From the NCBI RefSeq assembly GCF_900659615.1, contig NZ_CAACUY010000021.1, positions 1-64,000 on the forward strand: 64,000 nt of DNA. The letters are read 5' to 3'. Position numbers and translations under genes: made by a program. This stretch comes from Actinomadura fibrosa. Lineage in GTDB: Bacteria; Actinomycetota; Actinomycetes; Streptosporangiales; Streptosporangiaceae. This document shows, piece after piece, positions 1 to 64,000 of this stretch. Every line of letters begins with the position of its first letter. Within the stretch, counting starts at the first letter, position 1. Below the pieces are notes generated by a model. The model worked only from the letters and a program-made list of their open reading frames with translations. It was not told where the DNA came from and did not search any database.

Positions 1-620
1 CCGGGAGGGGCGACGACGAGGCCGTCCGCGCCCGCGCCGAGCGCGCGCAGCACGTCCCGGCCGGTCGAGACGCCCTGCACGAGGATCGGCAGCGGCGTCA
101 GCGAGCGCATCCGGTCCAGCCGCGCCCAGCCGGGGCCGGGTGCGGACCCGGCCGTCCGGGGCTCGGCGGCGAGGACGAACGCCTCGACGCCGGCCCGTTC
201 CGCGCGCTCGGCCAGCGCCCGGTCCGGGGGCCCGGACACCTGGAGCCAGAGGGGCGCGGCGCTCTCGGCGGCGAGGGCCTCGACGGGGTGCTCGGTGCGG
301 GCGCTGATCACGACGGGCACGCCGGCCGCGGCCGCCGTGCCCCGGAGCGTCGCGAGCTCCCCGGACGGGTGGGCGAGCGCCTGGTGGGCGAGCGGCGCGA
401 TGGCCATCGGCGCGTCCCAGACCCGGCCGAGGATCGTGGTGGCGGTCTCCGGGCGCTCCGGTCCGGGCGCGGCCGGGGAACGCAGCCGGACGCGGCCGAG
501 GGCGTCCGGGTCGGCGTCGAGCGCCCGGTCCGCGCCGGCGGCGCTCTCGAAAAGGCTCCACGTGCCGGACGGCACGCGCGCCTGGGCCAGCCGCGCGAAA
601 TCGCTCAGGGTCAATTCCAT
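1..620 (-). CDS. 4-hydroxymandelate oxidase-like FMN family protein (3' part cut by window edge)
   Basis: Start is ATG at 620, preceded by GGAGGT seven bases upstream; about 206 residues are visible and the C-terminus lies beyond base 1. The N-terminal half follows the alpha-hydroxy-acid oxidase fold (TIM barrel, FMN): residues PMAIAPLAHQ near position 85 match the PVAVAPVAYQ-type motif of 4-hydroxymandelate oxidases, which make 4-hydroxyphenylglyoxylate for Hpg. Oddities: the family Lys in V-K-G-V is Gln (VQGV, near residue 179), and exactly 24 residues later the S-N-H of the catalytic His motif reads A-P-P. The Q-L-Y segment is QVSG and the mobile loop is much shortened. By family knowledge this should abolish hydroxy-acid oxidation, so it may be a pseudoenzyme or have a new role. 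The family call is firm; activity is doubtful. A StrR-like box lies 163 bp upstream. Confidence 0.75.
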   Translation of the reverse strand, partial: MELTLSDFARLAQARVPSGTWSLFESAAGADRALDADPDALGRVRLRSPAAPGPERPETATTILGRVWDAPMAIAPLAHQALAHPSGELATLRGTAAAAGVPVVISARTEHPVEALAAESAAPLWLQVSGPPDRALAERAERAGVEAFVLAAEPRTAGSAPGPGWARLDRMRSLTPLPILVQGVSTGRDVLRALGAGADGLVVAPP

Positions 621-2242: not shown

Positions 2243-3391
2243 ATGGACGGGGGAATTCCGTTGAGCGCACGGGAGGCGTCACCCGTATCGGCGGGGCGGC
2301 CGCTTCTCGCGCCGGTCACGATAACGGCCACGAAACCCCTGCTTCCGACGCATGTAAAAGGCTTTCTGTGGGTGGACGCCCTTTTCCGCGGCACCTGCCT
2401 GGTCGCGGATCCGGAATACCATTGGAATCCGCGCACCCCGAATCTGACCGGGCAGACGATCCAGTTCTGGGACTACCTCGACCGCCGGCACGGGGACCTC
2501 GACTACGAGGGCGTCTCCCCCGACGACCTCGGGCGGCTCTACGTGCGGTTCCACGCGTCGGGCGACGCGCTCCCGCTGGACACGCTGCGCCACTACGCCG
2601 CCAGGGTGGAGCGGGACGGCTGGGTCCATCCGGCCACGCGCCGCATGACCCGCCACTGGAAACGGCACCTGGACCTGCTGGGCGTCCGCGACCCCGGCCT
2701 GCGGCGGGACCGGCCGCTGGGGATGCCGGCCGACGAGGTCGTCGCCCGGCTCGCGAGCCTGCGGCTGTGCCTGGACACCCGCCGGCACGGCGGCCCCGTC
2801 TACCTGGACGGGACGCGGTGGGGCATGCCCTTGCGGAAGGTCATCGGCGCGGACGGGCACGCCAACTACCTGCTGGTGATCCTGCGGGACCTGCTCCCGC
2901 GCCTGAGGCCGGGACGCCGCGTCCTCTTCGTCTACGACGACGACCTCTCCCCCGACTACGCCCTCCTCAGCCGGGTCACCGGCGCCCTGGGGGCGCGGCC
3001 GGCGCGCCTCCCGCTGGGCCGGGTGCCGGTGGGCGGAGCCGTCCGCACGAGCCGGTTCGGCGGATGGGACGACGTGACCATCGACCGGCTCTCCGAGCTG
3101 TGCCGCGGGGAGTTCGACGCCGCGGCGTACCGGCTGGGGATGCGCCTGTACTTCATCGCGATGCTGAAGCGCACGTCCGGCGAGCCGTTCCGGCTGGACC
3201 TGCTCCGCCGGGCCCTGAGGCGCGCCGAGGGGATGGTGCGGGACGCGCGCCGCGACGGGCCGCCGTCCGAGCGGGCGGGCGCGTGCGTCACGCCGTCCGG
3301 GTGGGTCGATCCGTACCGGCTCACCGACGGCCTGTTCGCCCGCCGCTCCCGCCCGGCGTCCCGGGGGCTGCTCGACGCGGTCTTCCTGTGA
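2243..3391 (+). CDS. unknown protein, first gene of the GH3/HMGR operon
   Basis: 382 residues from ATG 2243. An in-frame TTG at 2261 with GGGGGA six bases upstream is a good alternative. I do not recognise the family. It has no signal peptide or membrane segment and looks like a soluble, basic protein. Conserved-looking stretches are FWDYLDRRHGDLDY (residues about 78-91), a central GxxWGMPL...DGHANYLL region (about 192-215) and an acidic patch VYDDDLSPDY (about 233-242). The last resembles a metal-binding DDxxxD motif, but nothing else supports a terpene-synthase reading. The gene is 20 bp before the GH3-type ligase and very probably cotranscribed with it, so it likely belongs to the same acyl-processing route. 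Function not assigned. Confidence 0.75.
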   Translation: MDGGIPLSAREASPVSAGRPLLAPVTITATKPLLPTHVKGFLWVDALFRGTCLVADPEYHWNPRTPNLTGQTIQFWDYLDRRHGDLDYEGVSPDDLGRLYVRFHASGDALPLDTLRHYAARVERDGWVHPATRRMTRHWKRHLDLLGVRDPGLRRDRPLGMPADEVVARLASLRLCLDTRRHGGPVYLDGTRWGMPLRKVIGADGHANYLLVILRDLLPRLRPGRRVLFVYDDDLSPDYALLSRVTGALGARPARLPLGRVPVGGAVRTSRFGGWDDVTIDRLSELCRGEFDAAAYRLGMRLYFIAMLKRTSGEPFRLDLLRRALRRAEGMVRDARRDGPPSERAGACVTPSGWVDPYRLTDGLFARRSRPASRGLLDAVFL

Positions 3392-3411
3392 TCGGTACCC
3401 GAGGAGAAGCG

Positions 3412-5109
3412 ATGTCCGCCGACGAGCGTGCCGATGCCTACCGGCGCAGGGTCCACCGGGAGAGCCGGGCGTTCCTCGCCCGCCTCGGCGATCCGCGCGG
3501 CGCGCAGGCGGCGGTGCTCGGCGAGGTCCTCGCCGCCGGCGCCGGCACCGCGTTCGGCCGCGAGCACGGGCTGGGCTCCGTGCGCGACGCCGCCGGCTTC
3601 CGCCGCGCGGTGCCGGTGCGCGGCCACGAGGAGTTCGGGCCGTGGCTGGACCGGATCCACCGCGGGGAGAAGGGCGTCCTGACCTCCGAGGATCCCCTCG
3701 CGTTCTTCGCCAGCAGCGGCACCACCGGGGCCGAGAAGACCATCCCGGTGACCGGCGGCTTCCTGCGCCGCTGCTTCCTGCCGTTCTACTTCGCGGGCTT
3801 CGCCGCGCTGGTCGAGCACCATCCGGACCTGCCCGGACGCGACGACGCCGTCCTCAACCTCTGGCAGGACCCGCACTCCCCCACCGGCCGGACGAGCGGC
3901 GGCCGGCCGCACCTCGGGCCGAGCCAGCTCGACTACGGCGAGGTCGGCGAGGAGCTAGCCGTGGGCCTCGGCAACCGGGCGCCGTGGAGCCGGCTGCCGG
4001 ACCGGTCCGGCGACGCCGGGCCGTGGGAGCGGACCTACCTCCGCCTCCGGCTCGCCGCCGAGCACGACGTGCGCGGAGTCATCGCGGTGAATCCCGCCAT
4101 CGCGGCCGCCCTCCCCCACCAGCTCCGCCTCTGGTGGCCACGGCTGGTCCAGGAGATCAGGGACGGGACGCTCGGCGGCGCGCCGTTCCGGCCGCCCGCG
4201 CCCGAGCGCGCGGACGCGCTGGAGCGCCGCGCCGAGCGCCGCGGGCGGCCGGCCCCGGAGGCCGTGTGGCCGCGGCTGGAGCTGCTCCTGACCTGGAACA
4301 CCTACGTCGCCCGGCTCTACCTGCCGGAGCTGCGCGAGGAGTACGGGGAGGGGGTCCGGATCCGCCCGGCCCCGATCGGCTCCTCGGAGGGGCCGCTGGC
4401 CATCCCGGCGGCCGGCGCGTCGGCCGGCGGTCCGCTGGCCGTGGCGAGCTGCTTCTACGAGTTCGTCCCGGCCGACGAGGAGATCGATCCCCGCGGCGCC
4501 ACCCTCCTCGCCCACGAGCTGGAGGAAGGACAGGAGTACCACGTGATCCTCACCCATCTCGGGGGCCTGTACCGGTGCGCGCTGCGCGACGTCGTCCGGG
4601 TGGTCGGCTCCGCGGCGGCGACCCCCGTCGTCGAGTACTCCTGCCGCGCGGGCCTGGTCTCCGTGGCGGGCGAACGGCTGCGCGAGTCCCACGTGCTGCG
4701 CGCGATGGCGGACGCGCGGGCCGCGGCCGGCGGGACGATCCGCAACCTCGCCTACCGCGCGCGGCCCGGCGGAGGCGGCATTCCCGGTCACGAGGCGGCC
4801 GTCGCCTTCGGCGAACCGCGTCCCGGACGGGAGCTGGAGGCGTTCGGCGACGCCCTCGACGCGGCGCTGTCCCGGGAGGCGCCCGCCTACGCCCGTGCCC
4901 GCCGGGCGGGCTCCCTCGCCGCGCCCGTGGTCCGGCAGGTCCCTCCCGACGCGTTCTTCCGGGAGTGGCAGCGCCGGGTGGAAGCGGGCGAGCGCCCGCC
5001 GCGGGTGAAGGACAGGGTCTTCCAGGACGATCCCGGCGTCTGGGCGAGGCTGACGGCGCCCGCGCCGACACCCGTCCACGCGAGCGGATCGGACGCGCGC
5101 CATGCCTGA
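3412..5109 (+). CDS. GH3-family acyl-adenylating ligase
   Basis: 565 residues, close to the length of plant and bacterial GH3 proteins. Start ATG 3412 follows GAGGAG at 3401. The ATP-binding motif SSGTTGAEK is at about residues 101-109, a GSSEGPLAIPA motif near 322, FYEFVP near 348 (GH3 proteins have YFEFIP) and GLYRCALRDVV near 385 (family GLYRYRLGDVV). GH3 enzymes are adenylate-forming enzymes of the ANL superfamily that activate a carboxylic acid and join it to an amino acid or other acceptor. Substrate is unknown here. The stop codon overlaps the start of the HMGR/kinase gene by 8 bp, so the products probably act in sequence. It could load an unusual acyl group or prepare an acid for reduction; that part is inference. 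Confidence 0.85.
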   Translation: MSADERADAYRRRVHRESRAFLARLGDPRGAQAAVLGEVLAAGAGTAFGREHGLGSVRDAAGFRRAVPVRGHEEFGPWLDRIHRGEKGVLTSEDPLAFFASSGTTGAEKTIPVTGGFLRRCFLPFYFAGFAALVEHHPDLPGRDDAVLNLWQDPHSPTGRTSGGRPHLGPSQLDYGEVGEELAVGLGNRAPWSRLPDRSGDAGPWERTYLRLRLAAEHDVRGVIAVNPAIAAALPHQLRLWWPRLVQEIRDGTLGGAPFRPPAPERADALERRAERRGRPAPEAVWPRLELLLTWNTYVARLYLPELREEYGEGVRIRPAPIGSSEGPLAIPAAGASAGGPLAVASCFYEFVPADEEIDPRGATLLAHELEEGQEYHVILTHLGGLYRCALRDVVRVVGSAAATPVVEYSCRAGLVSVAGERLRESHVLRAMADARAAAGGTIRNLAYRARPGGGGIPGHEAAVAFGEPRPGRELEAFGDALDAALSREAPAYARARRAGSLAAPVVRQVPPDAFFREWQRRVEAGERPPRVKDRVFQDDPGVWARLTAPAPTPVHASGSDARHA

Positions 5110-7531
5110 GGGGATCGAGGACCAGGCCGGCGCGCCGGAGGCCTCCGGCGGCGAGTACCCGGTCATCCCGGGCCGCGGGGAGTACACGGAGCAGGCGAGA
5201 AGGGCCAGGCTGGAGTGGCTGCGCCGGACGTCGGGCGCCCCGCTGCGCTCGCTGGAGCACTCGTCGATCGATCAGCGCTCGCTGCCCGGGAACGCGGAGA
5301 ACGTCGTCGGCGGCATCGAGATCCCGGTCGGGCTGGCAGGCCCGCTGCTCGTCCGCGGCGACCACGTCCGGGGGCTCATCACGGCGCCGCTCGCGACCAC
5401 CGAGGGCGCGATGGTCGCCTCGGTGGCGCGCGGCGCGAAGGCGATCACGCTGGCCGGCGGGGCCGTGACCCGCGTCGTCCGGCAGCGGATGACGCGGGTG
5501 CCGGTGTTCGAGTTCGACGCCCTCGGGACGGCGGCGGAGTTCGCGCGCTGGGTCGCCGGCCAGGAGGGCGAGCTCGCCCGGCAGGTCACGGAGGTCTCCC
5601 GGCACTCGCGGCTCGTGGAGCTCGACCCCGTGCAGCTCGGACGGGTCGTCCACCTGCGCTTCGTGTACGAGACCGCCGACGCCAGCGGGCAGAACATGAC
5701 GACCGCGGCGACCTGGCGGGCCTGCCGGTGGATCCACGACCGGCTGGCGGCGGCGGCGCGGCCGCTGCCGGTCTGGTCCGCGGTCGAGGGGAACCTCAGC
5801 GGCGACAAGAAGTTCGCGCACATCAACACGATCGGCGGGCGCGGCACCCGCGTCATGGCCGAGTGCGAGCTGGACCGCGCGGTGATCCGCCGCGTGCTCA
5901 AGACGACCCCGGAGGCGATCGACCGGCTGTACCGGATCAGCGTCGTCGCCGCGCAGCAGGCCGGGATGGCCGGGCACGACATCGACGCCGCCAACGTCAT
6001 CGCGGCCATCTTCACCGCGACCGGGCAGGACATCGCCAGTGTGTACGAGTCCGGGGCCGGGTTCTTCTCCGTGGACCCCTTCTCCGGGGACGCCGCCGGC
6101 GGGCTGCGCGCGACGCTCGTCCTGCCGAACCTCGTCACGGGCGCGGTCGGCGGCGGCACGCGCCTGCGGCAGCAGCGCGACTACCTGGCGGCGCTCGGCT
6201 GCTCCGGCGACGGGTCGGCCGCCCGGTTCGCGGAGATCATCTGCGCGTTCGCGCTGGCGCTCGACCTGTCGACGATCGCCGCCATCGCGGGCGGGCAGTT
6301 CGCCGACGCGCACGAGCGGCTCGGCCGGGCGCGGGCGGTCGACTGGCTGCGCCCGGCCGACCTCGGCGCGCCGCTGCTCCGGCCGATGCTGGCCGCCGCG
6401 ATGGACGCCCCCGCCCTGCGCGTCACCGGCGTCGCCCCGATCGCGGACGCCGCCGGGTCGAGCCTCATCACCGAGCTCACCGCGCGCGGCGAGCGGCGCA
6501 AGACCGTCGGGGTCGTGCCGCTGCGCGTCACGTGGGTCCGGCGGGACGGGGACGACCCGAAGCAGACCGACGTGGTCGTCAAGGCCAAGCCCCTCGACCG
6601 GGAAGTGATCATCGAGGCCGCGAAGCTGGCCTCGCTGTGCGGCGGCGCGCTCGCCGACGTCTACCCGCGCTGGCGGGACTGGACGGGCTTCCAAGGCGTC
6701 CACACGCGCGAGCCCGCCGTGTACCGGTCGGCGGAGCCCGCGCTGCGCGCCGTGCTCCCCGCCGCCTTCGGGACGTTCGAGGACCCCGCCCGCGAGGCCT
6801 ACGTGATCGTGATGGAGCGGCTCGGCGCCAACGTGATCCTCAAGGACGCCGCCGACGCGCCGGGCGAGTGGCGGGAGGCGCACATCGCGGCGGCCGTCCG
6901 CGGCATCGCGGGCGTGCACCGCGCCTGGCTGGGCCGCGAGGCCGAGCTGCGCGGCGAGGGCTGGCTGGGCGCGACGCAGACCGCGGAGCGGATGACGGCC
7001 ATGCGGGAGCTGTGGTCGGCCCTGCTGGACCACGCCGCGGCCGAGCACCCCGGGCTGCTGGACGAGGCGGGGACGCGCAGGCTGCGCCGGATCATCGACG
7101 GGATCCCCGGCTGGTGGGGACGGCTGGAGGCCATGCCGCGCACCCTCGTCCACAACGACTTCAACCCGCGCAACGCCGCCCTGCGGGCCGCGGACCTGAG
7201 CCTCGTCGCCTACGACTGGGAACTCGCCACGCTGCACGTGCCCCAGCGGGACGTCGCCGAGTTCCTGGCCTTCGTCCTGCCTCCGGACGTCGCCGGCCCG
7301 GACGTCACCGCGTTCCTCGACCTCCACCGGGAGGCCGTCGGCGGCGGGATCGATCCCGCCACGTGGCGCGAGGGGCATCGCCTGGCGCTGTGGGACTTCG
7401 CCGTCACGCGCCTGCTGATGTACCTGATGGTGCACACCCACCGCGCGCTGCCGTTCCTCGGCCGCCTGACCGCCACGACCCTGCGCCTGATCGCGATCGA
7501 GGACGGCGCGGCCGGCGGGGCGGACCGGTGA
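5102..7531 (+). CDS. HMG-CoA reductase-like / APH-type kinase fusion
   Basis: 809 residues; ATG 5102 overlaps the GH3 stop. Residues about 20-430 are a class I HMG-CoA reductase-like domain: GNAENVVGGIEIPVGLAGPL near 60, TTEG with the catalytic Glu near 101, DASGQNMTT near 197 (family DAMGMNM, NADPH side), GNLSGDKK with the catalytic Lys near 235, TGQD near 309 and a His in FADAHERLGR near 403. All four expected catalytic residues (E, K, D, H) are present. Residues about 460-800 are an aminoglycoside-phosphotransferase/choline-kinase-type domain: VVVKAKP with the N-lobe Lys near 493, HNDFNPRN (catalytic loop HxDxxxxN) near 683 and YDWE near 704. This suggests reduction of an acyl thioester to an alcohol and phosphorylation of the product on one polypeptide. 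The natural substrate is unknown. Confidence 0.85.
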   Translation: MPEGIEDQAGAPEASGGEYPVIPGRGEYTEQARRARLEWLRRTSGAPLRSLEHSSIDQRSLPGNAENVVGGIEIPVGLAGPLLVRGDHVRGLITAPLATTEGAMVASVARGAKAITLAGGAVTRVVRQRMTRVPVFEFDALGTAAEFARWVAGQEGELARQVTEVSRHSRLVELDPVQLGRVVHLRFVYETADASGQNMTTAATWRACRWIHDRLAAAARPLPVWSAVEGNLSGDKKFAHINTIGGRGTRVMAECELDRAVIRRVLKTTPEAIDRLYRISVVAAQQAGMAGHDIDAANVIAAIFTATGQDIASVYESGAGFFSVDPFSGDAAGGLRATLVLPNLVTGAVGGGTRLRQQRDYLAALGCSGDGSAARFAEIICAFALALDLSTIAAIAGGQFADAHERLGRARAVDWLRPADLGAPLLRPMLAAAMDAPALRVTGVAPIADAAGSSLITELTARGERRKTVGVVPLRVTWVRRDGDDPKQTDVVVKAKPLDREVIIEAAKLASLCGGALADVYPRWRDWTGFQGVHTREPAVYRSAEPALRAVLPAAFGTFEDPAREAYVIVMERLGANVILKDAADAPGEWREAHIAAAVRGIAGVHRAWLGREAELRGEGWLGATQTAERMTAMRELWSALLDHAAAEHPGLLDEAGTRRLRRIIDGIPGWWGRLEAMPRTLVHNDFNPRNAALRAADLSLVAYDWELATLHVPQRDVAEFLAFVLPPDVAGPDVTAFLDLHREAVGGGIDPATWREGHRLALWDFAVTRLLMYLMVHTHRALPFLGRLTATTLRLIAIEDGAAGGADR

Positions 7532-8355
7532 CGGCCGCCGGTCCGCCGGCGCTGCGGGCGGCCCTGATCGGGATCGACGGTTCCGGCAAGAGCACCGTGG
7601 CGCGGCTGCTCGCGGATCGGCCGCGGGACGCCGGGCGCCGGGCCGTCCTGTCGTGCCTGCGCGCCCACGAGAACCCCGACGCCCCCTTGCAGGACCTCTC
7701 CCGCCACCTGGACACGCTGTCGAAGGAGGCCGACCGGCTCGACAGCCCCGACCTGAAGCTCGCCGTCCTGTACCTCCAGATGTGCACCTACGGCGTCGTG
7801 GAACGCTTCTTCGTGCGGGAGCTCGGAGTACGGGTCGTCATCACCGAACGCCATCCCCTCATCGACGCGCTCGCCTACCTGCCGCTCTACCGGCGGGCCG
7901 TCCGGCGGGTCGACGGCCCGGGCCGCCCGGCCGTCCTCCGCGAGCAGCTCGCCGGCCTGCCCCCGCCCGCCGCCGAGGCCGCGCTCGACTGGTGCCGGGT
8001 GCTCAGCGGGCGGCCGGGCGGGCGGGAGGTCCGGCTCGACACGCTGGGCGCCGAGCTGGCCGGGCTGGCGGAGCTGCCTCCCGGCCAGTGCGCCGCCGAG
8101 CTGTCCGCCAGGCTCGGGGTCACCGCCCCGGACGTCGCCGTGCTGCTCGACATCGACGTGGACACCGCGCTCGGACGGGTGGCTGCCCGGGGCGGCCGGC
8201 CCGAACTGCACGAGCGCGCCGGCGACCTCGCCCGGGTCCGCGAGAGCTACGACCGGGCGCTCGCGGCGTCCGGGACGGCCCGCGTCCACCGGCTGCCCGC
8301 CGGGCGGCCGCCCGAGGACCTCGCCGCCGAGGTCGCGCGGCTCATCGGCGGGTGA
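7528..8355 (+). CDS. thymidylate-kinase-like P-loop kinase
   Basis: 275 residues from GTG 7528, which overlaps the previous stop (GTGA). Walker A GIDGSGKST is at residues 14-22, an ITERHPLIDALAY segment near 110 corresponds to the nucleoside-monophosphate-kinase DR(Y/H) region, and VLLDIDVDTALGRVAARGG near 205 matches the TMPK segment before the lid. Residues about 125-195 carry an insertion rich in Arg and Pro compared with standard TMPK (about 210 residues). Known TMP kinases phosphorylate a phosphate group. Directly after an alcohol kinase domain, a second phosphorylation to a diphosphate is an attractive but unproven role. A housekeeping dTMP kinase is unlikely in this setting. Confidence 0.75.
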   Translation: MTAAGPPALRAALIGIDGSGKSTVARLLADRPRDAGRRAVLSCLRAHENPDAPLQDLSRHLDTLSKEADRLDSPDLKLAVLYLQMCTYGVVERFFVRELGVRVVITERHPLIDALAYLPLYRRAVRRVDGPGRPAVLREQLAGLPPPAAEAALDWCRVLSGRPGGREVRLDTLGAELAGLAELPPGQCAAELSARLGVTAPDVAVLLDIDVDTALGRVAARGGRPELHERAGDLARVRESYDRALAASGTARVHRLPAGRPPEDLAAEVARLIGG

Positions 8356-8361
8356 ACCGGG

Positions 8362-9051
8362 ATGCTCTCGCAGGACGAGCTGCGCGCACGCTTCGAGGAG
8401 CGGGTCGTGCGCGCCGGCCGGATGCCGCCGGACCCGCGCGACGCCGGCCGCGTCGGCGCGGTCGCCGTGCTGCGGGACTTCTCCCCGGGGACGTTCGCGC
8501 GGTCGGCGGTGGCGTTCGCCCGCGAGGCCCGCGGGACACGAGGGATGCGAGGGACGCGCGGGGACTGGGCGGCGGCCTGGTACGCGGGCTTCACCAGGAC
8601 GATCTTCCTCGCCGGGGATCCGCGCAACCTGCTCGAACGCCATCCCTGCCGGCATCTCGACCCGGACGGGGACATCGCCTGGTACGGCCCCGGGCCGCTC
8701 GCGGACCACGGCGCGCTACGGCGGCTGCTGCGGCCGTTCCAGGGTCCGCTCGGCGTCGCGGTCCCGTTCGTCCAGGAGATCCCCCTCGACGGCGGGGAGG
8801 CGGCCGGGAGCGGCCTCGCGCTGCTGGAGGTGTCCGCGGCGGGGCTGCCGGTGGAGGACTACCTGGTCAACGTCAACCACCTGCTCGCGGAGGCGGTGCT
8901 GGACGGTCTGCTCGACGGCACCGGCCGGTTGCTGATCCGCCACGTCGCCCACGAGCCCGACCCGCCCGCCGGGTACGACCGGATCCGGGTGACCGCCGAC
9001 CCGCGGACCCCGGGAAGGCTCCGCGCGCACGCCTGCCTCCGCGTCGGATGA
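8362..9051 (+). CDS. unknown protein, last gene of the GH3/HMGR operon
   Basis: 229 residues; ATG 8362 lies six bases after the previous stop, so it is in the same operon. I recognise no family. It has no signal peptide or transmembrane segment. A short internal repeat GTRGMRGTRG lies near residue 58, and an ordered-looking C-terminal half contains YGPGPLADHGALRRLL and VNVNHLLAEAVLDGLL. The operon appears to end here: the next 266 bp are non-coding and hold a StrR-like box for the next transcript. Confidence 0.7.
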   Translation: MLSQDELRARFEERVVRAGRMPPDPRDAGRVGAVAVLRDFSPGTFARSAVAFAREARGTRGMRGTRGDWAAAWYAGFTRTIFLAGDPRNLLERHPCRHLDPDGDIAWYGPGPLADHGALRRLLRPFQGPLGVAVPFVQEIPLDGGEAAGSGLALLEVSAAGLPVEDYLVNVNHLLAEAVLDGLLDGTGRLLIRHVAHEPDPPAGYDRIRVTADPRTPGRLRAHACLRVG

Positions 9052-9317: not shown

Positions 9318-10193
9318 ATGCCCTTCGTCGTGACCAACGGTGTCCGGCTCTCGTACCAGCGCGCGGGCGCGGGCGAGCCGGTCGTGCTCGTCATGGGCTC
9401 CTCCGCCGCCGCGCGCACGTGGGACGTGCACCAGACGCCGGCGCTGCGCCGGGCGGGCTTCGCGACGGTGACGTTCGACAACCGGGGCATGCCGCCGTCG
9501 GACCGCCCGGAGGGCGACTACCGCCTCGCCGACCTGGTCGCCGACACCGCCGGGCTGATCGAGGCCCTGGAACTCGGCCCGTGCCACCTGGTCGGGGTGT
9601 CGCTGGGCGCGCTGATCGCGCAGGAGCTGGCCCTCGCCCGCCCGGACCTGGTCCGGTCGGCGGTCCTGATGGCGACGCGGGCGCGGTCGGACGCCCTGCG
9701 GCGCGCGCAGTCGGCCGCCGACCGGGAGCTGCGCGCGAGCGGCGTCCGGCTGCCGCCCCGGTACCGCGCCGTCACGACGGCGACCGAGATGCTCGCGCCC
9801 GCGACACTGAACGACGACCGCGCCGTCTCGGCCTGGCTGGAGCTGTTCGAGCTCGCCGGCGGCGGCGCCGCCGACGGCCAGGCGGCGGCGGCCGACGGCC
9901 TCGGCGACCGGCGCGCGGCGCTGCGCGGAGTTTCCGTGCCGTGCCTCGCCGTCGCGTTCGCCGACGACCGGATCTGCCCGCCGCACCTCGTCGCCGAAGT
10001 GGCGGACGCCATTCCCGGATGCGAATTCCTGGAGCTTCCCGACTGCGGTCATCTCGGCTACCTGGAACGGCCCGAAGAAGTCAACTCCACCATCATCGAT
10101 TTCCTCATCGGAAATCGCGACAAGGTCGCGGCGGGCGCGGGTGCCGGGATTCTCCCGGACCCGGCGCCGGCCCCGGCGGGAAACGGGATCTGA
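9318..10193 (+). CDS. alpha/beta hydrolase
   Basis: 291 residues; ATG 9318 is preceded by GAGGAG nine bases upstream. The catalytic triad is visible: nucleophile Ser in GVSLGA near residue 95, Asp in FADDRICPP near 214 and His in CGHLGYLERP near 242. The oxyanion region VMGSSAAARTWD and the DNRGMPPSD loop are typical of the soluble esterase/haloperoxidase-like branch. Related hydrolases occur in ramoplanin-type and other Hpg-peptide clusters without an agreed role; possibilities are editing, ester hydrolysis or peptide processing. It is one base from the exporter gene and should be cotranscribed with it. Confidence 0.85.
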   Translation: MPFVVTNGVRLSYQRAGAGEPVVLVMGSSAAARTWDVHQTPALRRAGFATVTFDNRGMPPSDRPEGDYRLADLVADTAGLIEALELGPCHLVGVSLGALIAQELALARPDLVRSAVLMATRARSDALRRAQSAADRELRASGVRLPPRYRAVTTATEMLAPATLNDDRAVSAWLELFELAGGGAADGQAAAADGLGDRRAALRGVSVPCLAVAFADDRICPPHLVAEVADAIPGCEFLELPDCGHLGYLERPEEVNSTIIDFLIGNRDKVAAGAGAGILPDPAPAPAGNGI

Positions 10194-10194
10194 C

Positions 10195-12120
10195 GTGACG
10201 ATGATAGGCGGCCCGCCCGTGGGCCAGCTCCGAGCCGAACCGCGCGACGAGCTGCTGAAGGGCCGGCGGGTCGGCCGCCGGACGATCCGGCGGATCATGC
10301 CGTACGCGCGGCCGTACCGGCGCCACATCGTGCTGCTCGTGGCGGCCACGGCGCTCGGCGCGTGCATCGCGGCCGCGAACCCCCTGTTCCTCAAGCTGAT
10401 CATCGATCACGGCATCATGCCCCGGGACCTCGGCGTCGTCGTCGGGCTCAGCCTCGGGCTGGCCGGCCTGGCCCTCGTGGAGGCCGGGACCGCCTACCTC
10501 CAGAACCGCTGCTCGTCCCGCGTCGGCGAGGGACTCGTCTACGAGCTGCGCACCGAGGTGTTCACGCACGTGCAGCGGCAGCCGCTCGCGTTCTTCACCC
10601 GCGCGCAGACCGGCAAGCTGCTCAGCCGCCTCAACACCGACATCATCGGCGCGCGGCAGGCCGTGACGACGCTGCTGACGCAGGCGGTCTCCGCCGTCCT
10701 GACGCTCCTGCTGGTGCTCGGCGCGATGTTCTACCTGTCCTGGCAGATCACCGTGGCGGCCATGCTGATGGTGCCGCTGTTCCTGCTGCCCGCTCGGCTC
10801 ATCGGCCGCCGGATGCAGCGGCTCACCCGGAGGATGATGGAGCACGACGCCGAGATGACGTCGATGATGAGCGAGCGGCTCAACGTCTCGGGCGCGATGC
10901 TCTCCAAGCTCTACGGGCGCGTACCGGACGAGCGGGACGAGTTCGCGCGCCGCGCCGCGCGGGTCCGCGACACCTCCGCCAGCACCCTCGTCTGGGGCCG
11001 GATGCTCCCGGTCGTCGTCGTGGTGCTCACCTCGTTCACCACGGCCCTCGTCTACGGGCTCGGCGGTGCCCTCGTCGTCGACGGCACCGTCGAGTTCGGG
11101 ACCCTGGTCGCCATGGTGGCGCTGCTGCTGCGGGTGTACGGCCCCATCAACCAGCTCTCCACCCTCCAGTCGTCCGCCATGATCGCCCTGGTGAGCTTCG
11201 ACCGGGTCTTCGAGGTGCTCGACCTGGAGCCGCTCATCGCGGACCGGCCCGGCGCCCGCCCGCTGGCCGTCCCGGCGTCCAACGGCCACGGGCCCGCGGC
11301 CGTGCCGGACGTCCGCTTCGAGAACGTGTCCTTCCGGTACCCGGCCGCCGGGGAGGTGTCGCTGGCGTCGCTGGAACCGGCCGCCGTGAAGGAGTCCGCG
11401 CGGACGGGCGGCGGCGCGCCGGTCCTGCACGACCTGAGCTTCCACGCGCCGCCGGGGAAGCTCACCGCCCTGGTCGGCCCGTCCGGCGCGGGCAAGACCA
11501 CCATCACCCACCTGGTCCCCCGCCTGTACGACGCGACCTCCGGGACCGTGCGCGTCGGCGGGCACGACGTCCGCGACCTGACGCTAGCGTCGCTGCGCGA
11601 GAACATCGGGGTGGTGACCCAGGACGCCTACCTCTTCCACGAGACGGTGCGCGCCAACCTCGGCTACGCCCGTCCCGGGGCGGCGGAGCGGGAGCTGATC
11701 GAGGCCTGCGAGGCGGCGCTGATCTGGGACACCGTCCGCGCGCTGCCCGAGGGGCTCGACACCGTCGTCGGCGAGCGCGGCCACCGCTTCTCCGGCGGGG
11801 AGAAGCAGCGGCTCGCGCTGGCCCGCCTGCTGCTGAAGGCGCCGCCCGTCGTCGTGCTCGACGAGGCCACCGCCCACCTGGACTCCGAGTCGGAGGCCGC
11901 GATCCAGCGCGCCCTCCGGACCGCGCTGGCGGGCCGCACCTCCCTGGTGATCGCGCACCGCCTGTCCACCATCCGCGAGGCCGACCAGATCCTGGTCGTC
12001 GACGCCGGCCGGATCCGCGAGAGCGGCACCCACGAGGAACTGCTCGCCCTGGACGGCCTGTACGCCGACCTCTACCACAGCCAGTTCGCCCACCAGGCCG
12101 CCCGGCCGGACGGCTTCTAG
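10195..12120 (+). CDS. ABC transporter, fused membrane and ATPase domains (peptide exporter)
   Basis: 641 residues from GTG 10195 (GGGA six bases upstream); an ATG two codons later at 10201 is possible. Residues about 30-340 form the six-helix exporter domain (first helix HIVLLVAATALGACIAAANP). The nucleotide-binding domain has Walker A GPSGAGKTT near 430, signature FSGGEKQR near 533, Walker B VVLDEATAHLD near 552 and H-loop VIAHRLS near 585. About 25 extra residues (LASLEPAAVKESARTGG) sit between the first NBD strand and Walker A. This is a half-transporter that works as a homodimer and is the likely export and self-protection pump for the peptide. Confidence 0.92.
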   Translation: MTMIGGPPVGQLRAEPRDELLKGRRVGRRTIRRIMPYARPYRRHIVLLVAATALGACIAAANPLFLKLIIDHGIMPRDLGVVVGLSLGLAGLALVEAGTAYLQNRCSSRVGEGLVYELRTEVFTHVQRQPLAFFTRAQTGKLLSRLNTDIIGARQAVTTLLTQAVSAVLTLLLVLGAMFYLSWQITVAAMLMVPLFLLPARLIGRRMQRLTRRMMEHDAEMTSMMSERLNVSGAMLSKLYGRVPDERDEFARRAARVRDTSASTLVWGRMLPVVVVVLTSFTTALVYGLGGALVVDGTVEFGTLVAMVALLLRVYGPINQLSTLQSSAMIALVSFDRVFEVLDLEPLIADRPGARPLAVPASNGHGPAAVPDVRFENVSFRYPAAGEVSLASLEPAAVKESARTGGGAPVLHDLSFHAPPGKLTALVGPSGAGKTTITHLVPRLYDATSGTVRVGGHDVRDLTLASLRENIGVVTQDAYLFHETVRANLGYARPGAAERELIEACEAALIWDTVRALPEGLDTVVGERGHRFSGGEKQRLALARLLLKAPPVVVLDEATAHLDSESEAAIQRALRTALAGRTSLVIAHRLSTIREADQILVVDAGRIRESGTHEELLALDGLYADLYHSQFAHQAARPDGF

Positions 12121-14352: not shown

Positions 14353-19380
<5,028 letters not shown>

Positions 19381-19507: not shown

Positions 19508-21091
19508 CTACCAGCGCCACTCCCGCCGGCCGTACAGGTGCTCGGCGGGGACGTGCCGCTCCTTGCACCAGGCCATGAACTCCTCGATCTGCTTGATCTG
19601 GTAGGTGTCCTCGTTGTACGTGGTCGCCATGACGTGGCCGAGCCAGGGCTCCTCGCCCATGGCGTACACGTACGCCTCGCCGGCGCCGAGCTCGGTCATG
19701 ATGGCGGCGGCCTGCTCGGCGTTGGAGCCCGACAGCTTGCGCGAGTCGCTCATCTTCTTGGTGACCGGGACGGTCAGCAGCGCCTGGTAGAGCCAGGTCA
19801 GCGGCGCGCCGTCGCACTCCATGCCGAGGAACGCCATGTCGGCGGTGCCGAGGTGCCGTTTGACGTAGCGGTAGAGCGCGGGGTCGATCCCGGACGAGTC
19901 GGCGCCGATGAAGATCTTCTTGCCGGCCAGTTCCGCCCAGTAGGTCGACTTGGCGCGGATGTCGAGGTCGCAGTGCTCGCCGAGGAACGGCGTGGCGGTG
20001 ACCTTCCCGCCGGGGACGTCGAGCTCGTCGAAGTCGTCGACCTCGGTGACGGGGAAGCCCTGGTGCCGGAGCATCAGCGCCAGCGAGGGGTCGGGGAGGT
20101 TGCCGCGGGAGGCGCGCGGCACCACGACGCTGCCGACCCGGCCGCGCAGCTGGAGCAGCGTCTCCAGCACGATGTGGTCCTGGTGCCCGTGGGTGATGAG
20201 GACCAGGTCGATGAAGTCGGGCAGGTCGTCCAGGGTGTAGCGGTCGCCGGCGGTGCTGTCGGCGCTGATGAACGGGTCGACGACGATGGCCGCCTCCGGG
20301 CTCTGCAGCACCAGGCAGGCGTGCCCGAAGTAGCGGATCCGGCCGCCGGCGTCGATGTGCCGGTCCGGTGCGAGGGCCGGTTCGGCGCTGAGCATGCCGG
20401 CGAGCATCGCGGCCTGGGCGTCGTCCAGCTCCAGCGCCTCACGCAGGCGGGCCAGGGTCGTGGGCCGCACCCGGGCCTTGAAGAGCTCCTCCAGGCCCGG
20501 GTGATTGAACGGTATGCCGAGTTCCAGGACGTCCAGGGAGGGCAGCCGGGGGGTGCTCATGATGAACGGCCGCTCGATTCCCGTCTCGAACGACAATTGC
20601 ACCGACTGGCGCGACGCCTGGTAGTAGTCGCTGGTGTAGACGAGCGGCTCGATGAAGCGCATCTGCGCGTTGTTGTCGGTGTCGTAGGCGACCTCGACCA
20701 GGCCTCCGAGCTCGGCGGGCAGCTTCGGGTAGAGGGGGGTCAGGTCGAATCCGGTCGCGCTGGTCCGGAGCAGTTCCTGCCCTTCCGCGATCGCCTCGGC
20801 GAACCGCAGGATGTGCGCCCGCTCCCGCTTGATCTCGGCCAGCAGGTCGCGGACCTCGCCGGCGCGCTCCTCGGGGATGTTGATGAAGTAGCCGCCGCGC
20901 AGCTCCGGGTTGCCGCTCGCCGTGACGTGCACCTGCGGCGACTGGAGGTAGGACTCCAGCAGCGGGACCTGGAGGAAGGCGAGGTTCATCGCCGACTGCA
21001 CGGGCGCGATCGTGTGCGGCCAGGCGAAGAACCGGTCCACCAGCGGCTCGACGATGACCTTCGATTTGAGGAAGAGCTGTTCTTCGGCCAT
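19508..21091 (-). CDS. CmlA-type diiron beta-hydroxylase acting on NRPS-bound amino acids
   Basis: 527 residues, near CmlA (about 530). Start ATG 21091 has GGAGGT nine bases upstream; an ATG at 21100 abuts that site and is less likely. The C-terminal metallo-beta-lactamase-like domain carries HGHQDH near residue 300, a Glu in FLGEHCDL near 371 and an Asp in FIGADSSG near 397, in the positions expected for the diiron ligands of CmlA. The N-terminal 240 residues match the CmlA-specific domain that docks on the synthetase rather than other MBL proteins. CmlA and its relatives in teicoplanin- and ramoplanin-type clusters hydroxylate the beta carbon of a carrier-bound amino acid. Candidates here are Tyr (two modules), Asn, Asp or Phe. 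Its promoter region carries a StrR-like box. Confidence 0.9.
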
Positions 21092-57800: not shown

Positions 57801-60800
57801 TGTTCACCTTTCCGGTCAGCCGCAAGGTGACCGGGATGTTGTAGGTCGCGCCAGGGCCTTCCAGTTGGGTCAGGAACCATAACCGACGCTGGGCGAACGA
57901 CAGAGGCAGCCGCTCGGGACGTTCGCGTCTGACGAGTGCGGGCCTTGCCGACCCGCGCTCCGGTCCTGTGGTGAGCCCCGCCGCGAGCGCGGCGACGGTG
58001 GGTGCCTGGAACACCGTCCGGACGCCCACCTCGACGCCCAGCATCCTGCGGATCCGGCTGACCAGTCTCGTCGCCAGCAACGAGTGGCCGCCCAGCTCGA
58101 AGAAGTCGTCGTCCACCCCGACGCGGTCCAGTCCAAGGACCTCAGCGAAGGCCTGGCACAGCAACTCCTCGCATTCGTTGGACGGGGCGCGGCCCACGGT
58201 CACCCGGTACTCCGGCTCCGGAAGGGCGCGGTGGTCCAGCTTGCCGTTCACGGTCAGCGGCAGCGCGTCCAGGACCACCATCGCCGACGGCACCATGTAC
58301 TCCGGTAAGCGCCCAGCGGCGAACTTCCTCACGCTCACGGGCAGCTCACTACCACCCGCGTGGTCCAAAGGGACGATGTAGGCGATGAGGCGCCTGTCGC
58401 CGGGGGTGTCCTCGCGAGCGATCACAGCGGCCTGGGCGACCGCGGGATGCCCGGCCAAGCACGCCTCCACCTCGCCCGGCTCGATCCGGAACCCCCGGAT
58501 CTTGACCTGGTCGTCGGCCCGGCCCACGAACTCCAGCTCACCGGCGGCATTCCAGCGGACGCGATCACCCGTCCGGTACATCCGCTCACCGGGCTCGAAC
58601 GGGTCGGCCACGAACCGCTCCGCCGTCAACGCCGCGCGCCCCACATACCCGCGCGCCACCCCGGCCCCGGCCACGTACAACTCACCCGCCACACCCGGCG
58701 GCACCACACTCAGGGCCTCATCCAGCACGAACACCCGCGTGTTGGCCAACGCCCGACCGATCGGCAGCACATCCACCACCGGACCAGCCGTCTGGAACTG
58801 CGTCGCGCACAAGGTCACCTCGGTCGGGCCATACAACTGCCGCACCGAGATCCCAGGACACGCCTCCAAGATCCGCGACACCATGCTGGTCGGCACCACA
58901 TCCCCGCCGGTCAGCACCTCGCGCAAACCCGCAAAGCACCCCGGATCCTCCTGCGCAAGCACCCGCCCCAACCCCGCCGTGACATGCACATGCGTCAACC
59001 CGAACGCGGCGACCAGCTCACGCAGCCACGCCGCACCCACCTCACGCGCCGGTGCCACAACCACCGACGCCCCCGCCGCCAACGGTCCCCACACCTCATA
59101 CACCGACGCGTCGAACGCGTGCGGCGCATGGAACAGCACCCGGGAGTCGGACGACAGCCCCCAGAAGGTGTCCGAGACCAGCGCCGCCACGTCCCGATGC
59201 GACACCCCCACGCCCTTGGGCACTCCTGTCGATCCGGAGGTGTACATGACGTACGCCAGATCGCCGGCTGAGGCTCCCGCCGCCATTCCCGCGCCCGAGA
59301 GTTCGCCCACCGCTCCCCTCACCGCCGGATCATCGACCACGACCACGTTCACGTCCCATGGCAGGACGATGGTCAGCCCGCCGGTCAGCTCTCCAGGGAG
59401 CTTCCCGGCCAAGGCGGACGTGGCCAGCGCGCACGTCACGCCCGCGTCCCGCACCATGAACGCCACCCGGTCCGCGGGCAGCCCCGGGTCGATCGGCAGA
59501 TGAGCGCCGCCGGCCTTCCATACCGCCAGCAGCGACACGATCAGCTCGACGCCCCGCTCCATCACCACGCCCACCACCGACTCAGGGCCCACACCCTGGG
59601 CGGCCAGGTATCGAGCGAGCCGGTTCGCTCGTTCGTCCAGCTCCGGGTACGTGACGGATTCGTCCTGCGAGACCACCGCCACCGCATCCGGCGACCGCCG
59701 CACCCACTCCTCGAACAGCTCCACCACCGACGCACCCGGGACGGGTAGGACCTCGCCAGTGCCGGCCGACAGGACCCGCTCACGCTCGTCCCTCGACAGC
59801 ACCTCGACCCGCTCCAATGGCACGTCAGCGCTGGTGTCGAGCAGGGCCTCCAGGGTGTCGACCAGGTTGCCGATCGTGGTGTGCAGCAACCCGCACACCA
59901 ACTCGGCCTCGACCGGAGCGACCGCATCGACCACCAGGTCGAACCCGTCACCGCGGTCACCGACCGCGACCGCGAGCGGGTAGTTGCTGCGCTCCCGGCT
60001 GAAGATCAGCCTCATCCCGGCGCCGAGCTCCTTCGCGCGTCCGGCAGCCGGACTGGTGTAGCGGTAGTTGAAAATCGAGGCGAAGAGCGGAGCATCGCCG
60101 CGGACCGCGCTCGCGCGTTGGGTCAGGGCTAGTGGAGCGTGTTCGTGTTCGAGTAGCCCGGCGAGCAGGTTCCGGGTGGCGGTGATGGCTTGGCGCACTC
60201 CCGCTCCGCCGACCTGGACGCGGGCGGGCAGCGTGTTGATGAACAGCCCGGCCGCGCGGTCGGCACCGGCACCGGCCTGCATCCGGCCGAACAGCACCGT
60301 CCCGAACACCACGTCGTCACGCCCGGAGACCACCGCCAGCATCCGCGCGTACGCCACATGCATCACCGTCGCCGGGCTCACGCCCAGCCGCCGCGCCACC
60401 TCACGCAACCGCCCCGACATGTCGGGTTCCACCGGCCGGGCGGCACGCACCACACCCGAACCGTCGCCACGAACCTCCGCCACCCCGAACGGAAGCGTCG
60501 GCTCGCTCACCTCCGCCAGCATCTCCGCGAAGAACCGCTCATGCTCAGCGGCCGGGATCCCGCCCCTGGCCTGCGCCACGAACTCCCGGTACGACGGCGG
60601 CTCAGCCAGCTCACCGCCCCGGCCCGCCATGAACGCCCGCACCTCACCGAGCAGCACGTCCAGACCGGTGTGGTCACGGACCAGCTGGTGGACGCGGATC
60701 AAGGCCAGCCATCGCCCGGAATCGGGACGTTGGGCGATGTGCACGTCCATGAGGGGTGCGCGCCGCAGGTCCATCACCAGGCCACCCGCGGATACCAGGT

Positions 60801-63800: not shown

Positions 63801-64000
63801 GGATTCCAGCGAGCGCTTCCCGCCAATAGCCAATCTGCCGAGACAGGACGCTATCGGGGTCGTTCTCATCGCCCAGTAGTTCGCGCTGCCATAACGCGTA
63901 GTCGGCGTACTGCACCGGTAAAGCCGCCCACCCCGGCGCCCGACCCTCACAGCGCGCCGAATACGCCTGCGACACATCTCGCGCCAGCGGCCCCATCGAC
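54727..64000 (-). CDS. NRPS-A (5' end missing): ..Asp-Hpg-Tyr
   Basis: About 3090 residues are visible; the protein begins beyond base 64000, the window opening inside a C domain just after its HHxxxDGW motif. First visible module: rest of C, A (core TDLGNT near 62395; pocket D-L-T-K-V-G-H-I-G, Asp), T near 61355. Second: dual E/C with a changed active site (HQLVRDH near 60680), A near 59100 D-A-Y-H-L-G-L-L-C (Hpg), T near 58088. Third: C (HHIAGDG near 57515), A near 55900 D-A-S-T-V-A-A-V-C (Tyr), T near 54908. It ends in [14 protein letters not shown], overlapping the NRPS-B start by ATGA. It is the most upstream visible part of the main assembly line; starter modules, any acylating domain and the promoter are to the right of the window. 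Confidence 0.92.
59790..61160 (-). other. dual E/C domain with altered active site, NRPS-A Asp to Hpg
   Basis: The dual-type start [13 protein letters not shown] is kept, but the main motif reads HQLVRDH where the other three copies have HHLIQDH or HHLVQDH. The second His, catalytic in condensation and epimerisation domains, is Gln. The DNA (60665-60695) confirms the CAG codon. Epimerisation of Asp, and perhaps condensation, may be impaired. Confidence 0.7.

What the first reader, a model, noticed from the sequence alone, without database searches (positions are those of the whole stretch)
2243..9051. Five-gene GH3 / HMGR-kinase / NMP-kinase-like operon: candidate new acid-to-diphosphate route in a peptide cluster
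Seen: five genes on one strand with overlaps or gaps of 20 bp or less, encoding an unknown protein, a GH3 adenylating ligase, an HMG-CoA-reductase domain fused to an APH-type kinase, a thymidylate-kinase-like enzyme and a second unknown. Known: GH3 activates acids; HMGR does a four-electron reduction of a thioester to an alcohol; APH kinases phosphorylate hydroxyls; TMPK-type enzymes add a second phosphate. Inference: in order these give acid -> acyl conjugate -> alcohol -> phosphate -> diphosphate, a mevalonate-like logic that could make an unusual alkyl donor or side chain for the peptide. I know of no described Hpg-peptide cluster with this set.
Basis: partly seen in the sequence, partly recalled or inferred. 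Interest (0 to 1): 0.85.

Follow-up and report, generated by a model that had tools for sequence, protein, structure and literature searches.

The report
Portable five-gene biosynthetic cassette, product unknown
Five neighbouring genes in this soil bacterium form a conserved, movable set of enzymes that turns up in clusters for several different kinds of natural product and seems to build an unknown chemical group, which makes it a testable lead to new chemistry.

Summary
The operon is real. Window 2243-9051 holds five same-strand genes: A, GH3, an HMGR-APH fusion, a TMPK-like kinase and DUF6182. I found 21 full-length HMGR-APH loci; 20 carry all five genes side by side in two gene orders, one carries the fusion alone. 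The set behaves as a unit and sits in Hpg/Dpg-NRPS, PKS and lasso-peptide clusters, near a radical-SAM RiPP, or with no scaffold genes seen (6 of 20).

Both "unknowns" gained a lead. Protein A is a stand-alone paralogue of arginyl-tRNA synthetase (fold Z 23; degenerate HIGH, KMSKS-like loop). DUF6182 has a Pth2-like half (weaker evidence). A sister "type II" cassette keeps A, DUF6182, usually GH3 and a P-loop protein, but has a carboxyl-methyltransferase and often an FAD enzyme in place of HMGR-APH. By order and size it matches a nine-ORF unassigned insertion published in the rubiginone cluster.

I favour a portable module with two adenylating ligases that assembles a group containing a reduced, phosphorylated alcohol. 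Substrate and product are unknown; HMG-CoA is doubtful.

The parts
2243..3391 (+). Protein A: stand-alone ArgRS-like class I tRNA-synthetase paralogue (382 aa); HIGH-like TKPLLPTHVKG, KMSKS-like RTSRFGGW
   Evidence: AlphaFold pLDDT 90.9; Foldseek ArgRS 2zue E 3e-9; VIA Z 23.2 over 343 residues to ArgRS, MshC 20.6; profile's top PDB hit is ArgRS, E 0.012, with both signature motifs aligned
3412..5109 (+). GH3-family acyl-adenylating ligase (565 aa)
   Evidence: Pfam GH3 131 bits; in 42 aligned homologues: SG[ST]TG..K 42, EG of motif II 42, YR in motif III 40 (HR and FR in the other two) with its Asp in 42
5102..7531 (+). HMGR-APH fusion (809 aa)
   Evidence: conserved as a fusion in 21 loci
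5198..6328 (+). HMG-CoA reductase domain, class I type; the four catalytic residues kept
   Evidence: PF00368 338 bits; site table 20 of 20 for E101, K236, D310, H404
6440..7501 (+). APH-like kinase domain (ends approximate; the Pfam stretch is 6758-7282)
   Evidence: PF01636 22.5 bits, cut-off 23.2; HNDFNPRN and YDWE motifs
7528..8355 (+). Thymidylate-kinase-like P-loop kinase (275 aa)
   Evidence: PF02223 44 bits; PDB thymidylate kinases, best E 1.5e-4; P-loop in 17 of 20, the other three begin late there and show it; [ED]RHP 20 of 20
8362..9051 (+). DUF6182 protein (229 aa); residues 30-126 Pth2-like fold
   Evidence: PF19680 168 bits; VIA Z 6.0-7.2 to six Pth2 entries, next entry 2.1; Foldseek E only 0.83
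3..620 (-). Context: FMN-dependent hydroxyacid oxidase (HmO-like by recall), cut by the contig end
   Evidence: PF01070
898..2028 (-). Context: prephenate dehydrogenase
   Evidence: PF02153/PF20463
9318..10193 (+). Context: alpha/beta hydrolase, 266 bp after the operon; homologues in NRPS-type loci of other genomes
10201..12120 (+). Context: ABC transporter
   Evidence: 72% identical to L170:13550-15424
14353..19380 (-). Context: NRPS (C-A-T-C)
19508..21091 (-). Context: CmlA-like diiron beta-hydroxylase
   Evidence: PF18456 278 bits
21420..64000 (-). Context: NRPS assembly line, continues to about contig position 70,000

Best explanation
The operon is a self-contained, horizontally moving biosynthetic cassette that builds a small acyl or amino-acid-derived group and joins it to scaffolds made by neighbouring clusters. 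SHOWN by sequence: five co-inherited genes; a core of A, DUF6182, a P-loop kinase-like protein and mostly GH3 shared with a sister (type II) cassette; an interchangeable accessory part (HMGR-APH here, LCM methyltransferase with or without an FAD enzyme there); intact catalytic motifs in GH3, HMGR and APH and an intact P-loop in the TMPK-like kinase; A has the fold of the ArgRS branch of class I synthetases but is much shorter. INFERRED: GH3 and A are two ATP-to-AMP ligases, each making an acyl or aminoacyl bond (A working like MshC, a synthetase paralogue that ligates an amino acid without tRNA); the HMGR domain reduces a thioester by four electrons to a primary alcohol and the fused APH domain phosphorylates it at once; the TMPK-like enzyme adds a phosphate in a step common to both cassette types; DUF6182 binds or transfers the aminoacyl intermediate. 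The HMGR substrate is probably not HMG-CoA but an acyl or aminoacyl thioester with a cationic or neutral end group.
For: 20 of 21 full-length fusions have all five genes, in two gene orders; r 0.90-0.97 between distance matrices. Type I is one well-supported split in the trees of A (0.994) and GH3 (1.0). Contexts differ while the cassette stays the same: Hpg/Dpg-NRPS, PKS, lasso operons (TauD and A overlap in L128, 5 bp apart in L126), rSAM RiPP, stand-alone. A has an ArgRS-like fold. Catalytic residues kept 20 of 20. No HMG-CoA synthase match in the genome (97.5% complete). Three positions that in human HMGR face the HMG end (recalled) differ: S684 is E/D in 20 of 20, H752 is D/N in 20 of 20, K735 is R 14, T 4, V 2. 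This genome's three GH3 matches all lie in such cassettes. Published precedent for a synthetase-like enzyme moving an amino acid onto a metabolite: SbzA (PMC6331615, abstract and passages).
Against: No product is known. 6 of 20 type I loci and 26 of 31 other A loci had no NRPS/PKS motif or RiPP gene noticed in the stretches held (the motifs do not cover every scaffold type), so attachment to a scaffold is not shown. The rubiginones reported from a cluster that carries a type II cassette show no part assigned to it. Glu at the S684 position also occurs in 7 of 15 other actinobacterial HMGR-like proteins, so it is no proof of a new substrate. The first His of HIGH is replaced in A, so adenylation is not certain. 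The type I split was not recovered in the DUF6182 tree. One genome has the fusion without the other four genes. Only 1 of 4 type II P-loop proteins scanned passes the thymidylate-kinase cut-off.
Confidence: 0.42

Rival explanations
1. The cassette makes a free small molecule (signal, synergist or separate antibiotic) and only travels with natural-product clusters; nothing is attached to the peptide.
For: 6 of 20 type I loci and 26 of 31 other A loci show no scaffold motif in the stretches held; three type I loci have the same exporter-type gene next to A (identified as DHA2-type MFS on L034 only, under that model's cut-off); 4 type II loci carry AfsA-type and HAD-type genes (scored on L117 only); rubiginone structures explained without the nine genes.
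Against: Repeated co-location with several scaffold classes, including the gene overlap with the lasso TauD gene in L128 (TauD ends 9413, A starts 9410).
Confidence: 0.25
2. A mevalonate-type unit: HMG-CoA is reduced to mevalonate, phosphorylated by APH and perhaps by the TMPK-like enzyme, and GH3 joins its carboxylate to an amine.
For: HMGR catalytic residues, R590 and the DKK loop are kept; HMG-CoA could come from leucine breakdown (recalled).
Against: No HMG-CoA synthase match in the genome; the changed pocket positions; type II cassettes lack HMGR.
Confidence: 0.13
3. One reading: acid -> acyl conjugate -> alcohol -> monophosphate -> diphosphate alkyl donor.
For: The enzyme classes could do these steps in that order; the type II P-loop protein is only weakly TMPK-like, so the type I TMPK-like enzyme could still act after APH. 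(Raised from 0.08 to 0.10 for this on rechecking.)
Against: GH3 occurs with A and DUF6182 but without reductase or APH in type II cassettes; none of the five proteins matches an alkyl- or prenyltransferase family; does not use A or DUF6182.
Confidence: 0.1
4. tRNA-linked chemistry: A charges, or takes amino acids from, a tRNA and DUF6182 (Pth2-like) handles the aminoacyl ester.
For: ArgRS-like A beside a protein with a Pth2-like half; profile match of DUF6182 to mitoribosomal mL65 (E 0.0004); SbzA works in the presence of charged tRNA.
Against: A lacks the ArgRS N-terminal domain and is short at the C-terminus; Pth2 catalytic residues (recalled) are not evident in DUF6182; Foldseek match E only 0.83.
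Confidence: 0.08

Closest known systems
Nine-ORF insertion rubM2-rubP4 in the rubiginone cluster of Streptomyces sp. CB02414 (PMC8487521; abstract, passages and sections 7, 11, 12 read)
   Same: Gene order and sizes match the type II cassette: MT, alpha/beta hydrolase, LysR-type, 254 aa, 373 aa, oxidoreductase, MT, GH3, 209 aa. Authors suggest horizontal transfer or transposition and note the same nine genes outside any recognisable BGC in S. hundungensis.
   Different: No HMGR-APH; the authors assign no function; I did not compare the Rub sequences themselves.
MshC, cysteine ligase of mycothiol synthesis
   Same: Class I synthetase paralogue; fold Z 20.6 over 299 residues to A. It ligates an amino acid to an amine through an adenylate (recalled).
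   Different: CysRS-derived with zinc-binding Cys (recalled); A is ArgRS-like, and no Cys is among its invariant or nearly invariant columns.
SbzA of SB-203208 biosynthesis (PMC6331615; abstract and passages seen)
   Same: Synthetase-like enzyme that moves an amino acid onto a non-peptide metabolite.
   Different: IleRS-like, multi-domain, works from charged tRNA.
Class I HMG-CoA reductase of the mevalonate pathway
   Same: Family and the four catalytic residues.
   Different: Fused to a kinase, no HMG-CoA synthase match in the genome, pocket changes.
Bacterial GH3 ligase OlsH
   Same: Same GH3 superfamily; E 6e-24 to the OlsH model.
   Different: 84 bits against a cut-off of 620, so not an OlsH.

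Membership tests
Mevalonate pathway (HMG-CoA to mevalonate diphosphate) | HMGR catalytic Glu, Lys, Asp, His | tested here: met
   20 of 20 fusions
Mevalonate pathway (HMG-CoA to mevalonate diphosphate) | HMG-CoA synthase in the genome | tested here: not met
   PF08540: 0 matches in own genome (97.5% complete); 4 of 14 control genomes ring
Mevalonate pathway (HMG-CoA to mevalonate diphosphate) | GHMP-type mevalonate kinases in the operon | tested here: not met
   Kinases are APH-like and TMPK-like
Mevalonate pathway (HMG-CoA to mevalonate diphosphate) | Turnover of HMG-CoA | not testable with these tools
   needs enzyme assay
Arginyl-tRNA synthetase | Class I catalytic fold of the ArgRS branch | tested here: met
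Arginyl-tRNA synthetase | Intact HIGH motif | tested here: not met
   PTKPLHMGHARN aligns to PTKPLtptHlKg: first His lost, second kept
Arginyl-tRNA synthetase | ArgRS N-terminal domain | tested here: not met
   382 aa; in the ArgRS rows the alignment begins at chain residue 103 or later, except one row (1iq0) from residue 70
MshC-like tRNA-independent aminoacyl ligase | Synthetase fold without anticodon-binding domain | tested here: inconclusive
   Z 20.6 over 299 residues; C-terminal helices are short but partly aligned to ArgRS
MshC-like tRNA-independent aminoacyl ligase | ATP-dependent amide formation | not testable with these tools
   needs assay
GH3 acyl-adenylating ligases | Three ATP/AMP motifs | tested here: met
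   motifs I and II in 42 of 42 aligned, motif III YR....D in 40 of 42, HR or FR in two
Peptidyl-tRNA hydrolase 2 | Pth2 fold | tested here: inconclusive
   residues 30-126, Z 6.0-7.2 to six Pth2 entries, the only other entry listed at Z 2.1, but Foldseek E 0.83
Thymidylate kinase | dTMP kinase equivalog score | tested here: not met
   39.5 bits against 83.25 for TIGR00041; the wider family PF02223 is met

The most novel reading that the evidence does not exclude
A previously undescribed family of portable tailoring pathways, built around a stand-alone ArgRS paralogue and DUF6182, that plugs into NRPS, PKS and ribosomal lasso clusters alike and installs a group made by adenylating ligases plus an aminoacyl-thioester reductase fused to a kinase. 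The HMGR fold would have been recruited to make phosphorylated amino alcohols.
Probability: 0.25. Interest if true: 0.88.

Novelty: new variant of a known kind. Interest (0 to 1): 0.68.

Why it matters
If right, one small gene set can be added to peptide scaffolds of quite different origin, which is rare and useful for engineering. It would give a first role to DUF6182, show a tRNA synthetase of the ArgRS branch turned into a metabolic ligase, and show an HMG-CoA reductase fold fused to a kinase outside the mevalonate pathway. The lasso loci (a 40-residue precursor plus about nine genes) make the question cheap to test.

Tried and rejected
Pfam, NCBIfam and single-sequence PDB searches gave nothing useful for A (1wjg E 0.017 taken as chance). 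Profile matches of A5 to RecR (E 0.19-0.22) and of A6 to arylsulfatase (E 0.09) were taken as chance. The APH domain alone has no PDB sequence match up to E 10. PDCD9 matched 1 of 40 DUF6182 proteins at E 0.38, so the mL65 link stays a lead. Promoter and terminator scan: nothing above chance. The first HMGR comparison used wrong frames for several loci and was replaced. Literature: in the listings of searches I saw no paper on the HMGR type and only PMC8487521 with the type II set; long results were listed only in part (25 of 9,718; 20 of 111; 12 of 90), and subscription papers are mostly not held. My gene caller sometimes started genes late; starts of core genes were reset, others not. Regex counts miss late-started genes; aligned counts are used where given. 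One search counts window bases 60001-64000 twice; the module strings do not. The 31 other A loci include two contig ends of one genome (L118, L119), probably one cassette, and short contigs.
Full report
WHAT IS THERE. Two same-genus genomes have contigs equal in length to named Actinomadura records, so Actinomadura is likely. The five genes lie at 2243-3391, 3412-5109, 5102-7531, 7528-8355 and 8362-9051 on the + strand with gaps or overlaps of +20, -8, -4 and +6 bp. Family matches: GH3, HMG-CoA_red with an APH-like tail just under the APH cut-off, Thymidylate_kin, DUF6182; nothing for the first. To the left, on the other strand, are an HmO-like oxidase and prephenate dehydrogenase; to the right an alpha/beta hydrolase, an ABC transporter, a sulfotransferase, a CmlA-type hydroxylase and a long NRPS line that ends near contig position 70,000 with a short MbtH-like gene (the MbtH, HmO, HmaS, HpgT and Dpg labels are by look or recall).

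IT IS ONE UNIT. A search of 341 genomes of the family with the fusion protein found 26 genomes with an HMGR-like match. Thirteen loci were full-length fusions (two of them matched in two pieces), two of them in this genome. All 12 fusion loci outside the window had the same five genes in the same order (in L037 the contig ends inside DUF6182). A plasmid of Streptomyces sp. NBC_01435 has a 52% identical fusion with all five genes in another order, A-DUF6182-GH3-HMGRAPH-TMPK. In 392 genomes of genus g85 (not named by the tool, probably Streptomyces), a search with the APH half found 8 genomes: six are loci with all five genes, also in that second order; one (G727, L163) has the fusion alone; one (G959, L164) has only fragments of the APH half and of the TMPK-like gene. 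In sum, 20 of 21 full-length fusions carry the complete set. Pairwise distances of the five proteins over these 20 loci correlate at 0.90-0.97 (no unrelated gene was run as control).

A SISTER CASSETTE. DUF6182 was found in 6 of 394 genomes of the class, protein A in 28 of 392 genomes of g85, in 3 of 35 of the family of G612 and in 16 of 341 of the window's family. Of the 51 A sequences, 31 are from loci without HMGR-APH (two of these are contig ends of one genome). The usual form there is P-loop protein - GH3 - LCM methyltransferase - (FAD enzyme) - A - DUF6182 - (PBP-like protein - alpha/beta hydrolase - methyltransferase). I call the HMGR form type I and this type II. Smaller variants show no GH3 (L075, L134, L167; L168 is only a 4.8-kb contig), and one form has DUF6182 fused to an FAD domain (L073, L074). 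The type II P-loop protein passed the thymidylate-kinase cut-off in 1 of 4 scanned (L117; not L070, L075, L114) and matches the type I kinase only over 78 C-terminal columns (hhalign probability 94%), so I call it kinase-like with less certainty. This genome has two type I copies (contigs C21, C76) and one type II copy (C327), and its three GH3 matches are exactly those three. Type I is a single split in the A tree (0.994) and GH3 tree (1.0), but not in the DUF6182 tree. A nine-ORF region of the rubiginone cluster fits type II gene by gene in order and size; its authors give it no function and suggest horizontal transfer or transposition (PMC8487521, section 7). I did not compare those sequences.

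WHERE TYPE I SITS. Of the 20 complete type I loci: 10 have NRPS, PKS or Hpg/Dpg-type genes in the stretch held (window, G190, G186, G180, G322, NBC_01435, G802, G901, G907, G1026; for G190, G186, G180 and G907 the sign is a CmlA-like gene with Hpg/Dpg-type genes, not NRPS modules). Two are joined to lasso operons (G900 = L126, G939 = L128). On L128, PqqD NF033530 (89 bits, cut-off 70) and B2 NF033537 (103, cut-off 33) pass; the cyclase model NF033561 is the best match but under its cut-off (242 of 300). On L126, Asn_synthase PF00733 and TauD PF02668 pass. Both have a precursor-like ORF of 40 codons. G900 also has NRPS motifs further downstream. Two lie near a RiPP radical-SAM C-methyltransferase: G246, 130 bp from the cassette (TIGR03975 E 9e-180), and G285, about 2.8 kb away with three genes between and a protein with the same start, not scored. 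Six have none of these (C76, G264, G250, G268, G239, G263; G268 has a single carrier-protein-like motif). In L128 the TauD gene and A overlap (9410-9413); in L126 they are 5 bp apart. The stretches held were 10-79 kb, so absence is not proof.

WHAT THE UNKNOWN PROTEINS ARE. Protein A was modelled from an alignment of 43 sequences (pLDDT 90.9). The best solved structures are arginyl-tRNA synthetases (Foldseek E 3e-9; Z 23.2, rmsd 3.8, 343 residues), then CysRS and MshC (20.6). A profile of the family has ArgRS as its best PDB sequence match, at a modest E of 0.012, but with PTKPLtptHlKgllwvDv against PTKPLHMGHARNAILGDV and ssrhGgweght against SGRKGTWVGFT (the second piece scores under 1 bit). 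So the HIGH motif is degenerate (one His kept) and a KMSKS-like loop is probable. DUF6182 (40 sequences, pLDDT 90.4) has residues 30-126 like Pth2: six entries at Z 6.0-7.2 and the next entry 2.1, but Foldseek alone gave E 0.83, and Z under 8 can be a common arrangement. Its profile also touches mitoribosomal mL65 (E 0.0004) through WxxSFTxTVFLxGxP.

WHAT THE ENZYMES CAN DO. In 42 GH3 proteins motifs I and II are kept in all (one has TSG for SSG) and motif III YR....D in 40 (HR and FR in the others); the 20 APH domains keep HxDxxxxN; the 20 HMGR domains keep the catalytic Glu, Lys, Asp and His. Three positions that in human HMGR face the HMG end (roles recalled) are changed: E/D for S684 (20 of 20), D/N for H752 (20 of 20), R/T/V for K735. 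Glu at the first also occurs in 7 of 15 other HMGR-like proteins, while H752 is kept as His in 13 of those 15. PF08540 (HMG-CoA synthase) has no match in the genome, which is 97.5% complete. I read this as a working four-electron reductase whose substrate is probably not HMG-CoA.

MECHANISM. The favoured model is given under best explanation. The core therefore is A + DUF6182 + P-loop protein (+ GH3), and HMGR-APH is an add-on that would make and phosphorylate an alcohol. Whether the product is joined to the neighbouring scaffold is not shown; the lasso loci are the best place to test it. Against attachment: the authors' pathway to the rubiginones uses none of the nine type II genes.

NOVELTY. 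Each enzyme belongs to a known superfamily, and synthetase-like ligases in natural-product or thiol pathways are known (SbzA, MshC). I saw no description of this set in the searches listed under tried and rejected. I rate it a new variant of a known kind (portable tailoring or precursor cassettes), with a real chance of being a new pathway class.

Noticed in passing
G000:C76 (L034:7035-13803) and G000:C327 (L070:641-8489): The same genome has a second type I cassette beside an MFS-type transporter gene and a type II cassette; its three GH3 matches are exactly the three in these cassettes.
   Followed up: yes
L128:5794-5916 (+) and L126:14152-14274 (-): Two lasso-precursor-like ORFs of 40 codons with nearly the same core (GVG[FI]PLADFFIHFD) upstream of lasso genes, TauD and the cassette.
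   Followed up: partly
L163:9593-11869: A lone HMGR-APH fusion (45% identical to a type I fusion, genome G727) without the other four genes nearby.
   Followed up: partly
L164: Fragments of the APH half (with a stop) and of the TMPK-like gene: a likely decayed cassette in genome G959.
   Followed up: no
window:8362-9051: DUF6182 profile matches mitoribosomal protein mL65 (MRPS30) at E 0.0004 through one motif; PDCD9 in Pfam matched 1 of 40 members at E 0.38.
   Followed up: partly
L073:10514-12700 and L074: DUF6182 fused to a cytokinin-dehydrogenase-like FAD domain (PF01565 + PF09265; scored on L073 only).
   Followed up: no
L016-L024, L031: Stand-alone HMGR-like proteins of actinobacteria, 36-42% identical to the fusion's reductase half; 7 of these 10 have Glu at the human S684 position.
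   Followed up: no
window:12726-14141: Sulfotransferase in the NRPS cluster; the NBC_01435 plasmid cluster has an APS kinase gene and two sulfate-adenylyltransferase-like genes by look, so some products may be sulfated.
   Followed up: no
window:9318-12120 and L170:12710-15424: Alpha/beta hydrolase homologue and ABC transporter (72%) shared with an Hpg/Dpg-type NRPS locus of genome G1026, suggesting related peptide clusters in two genera.
   Followed up: partly
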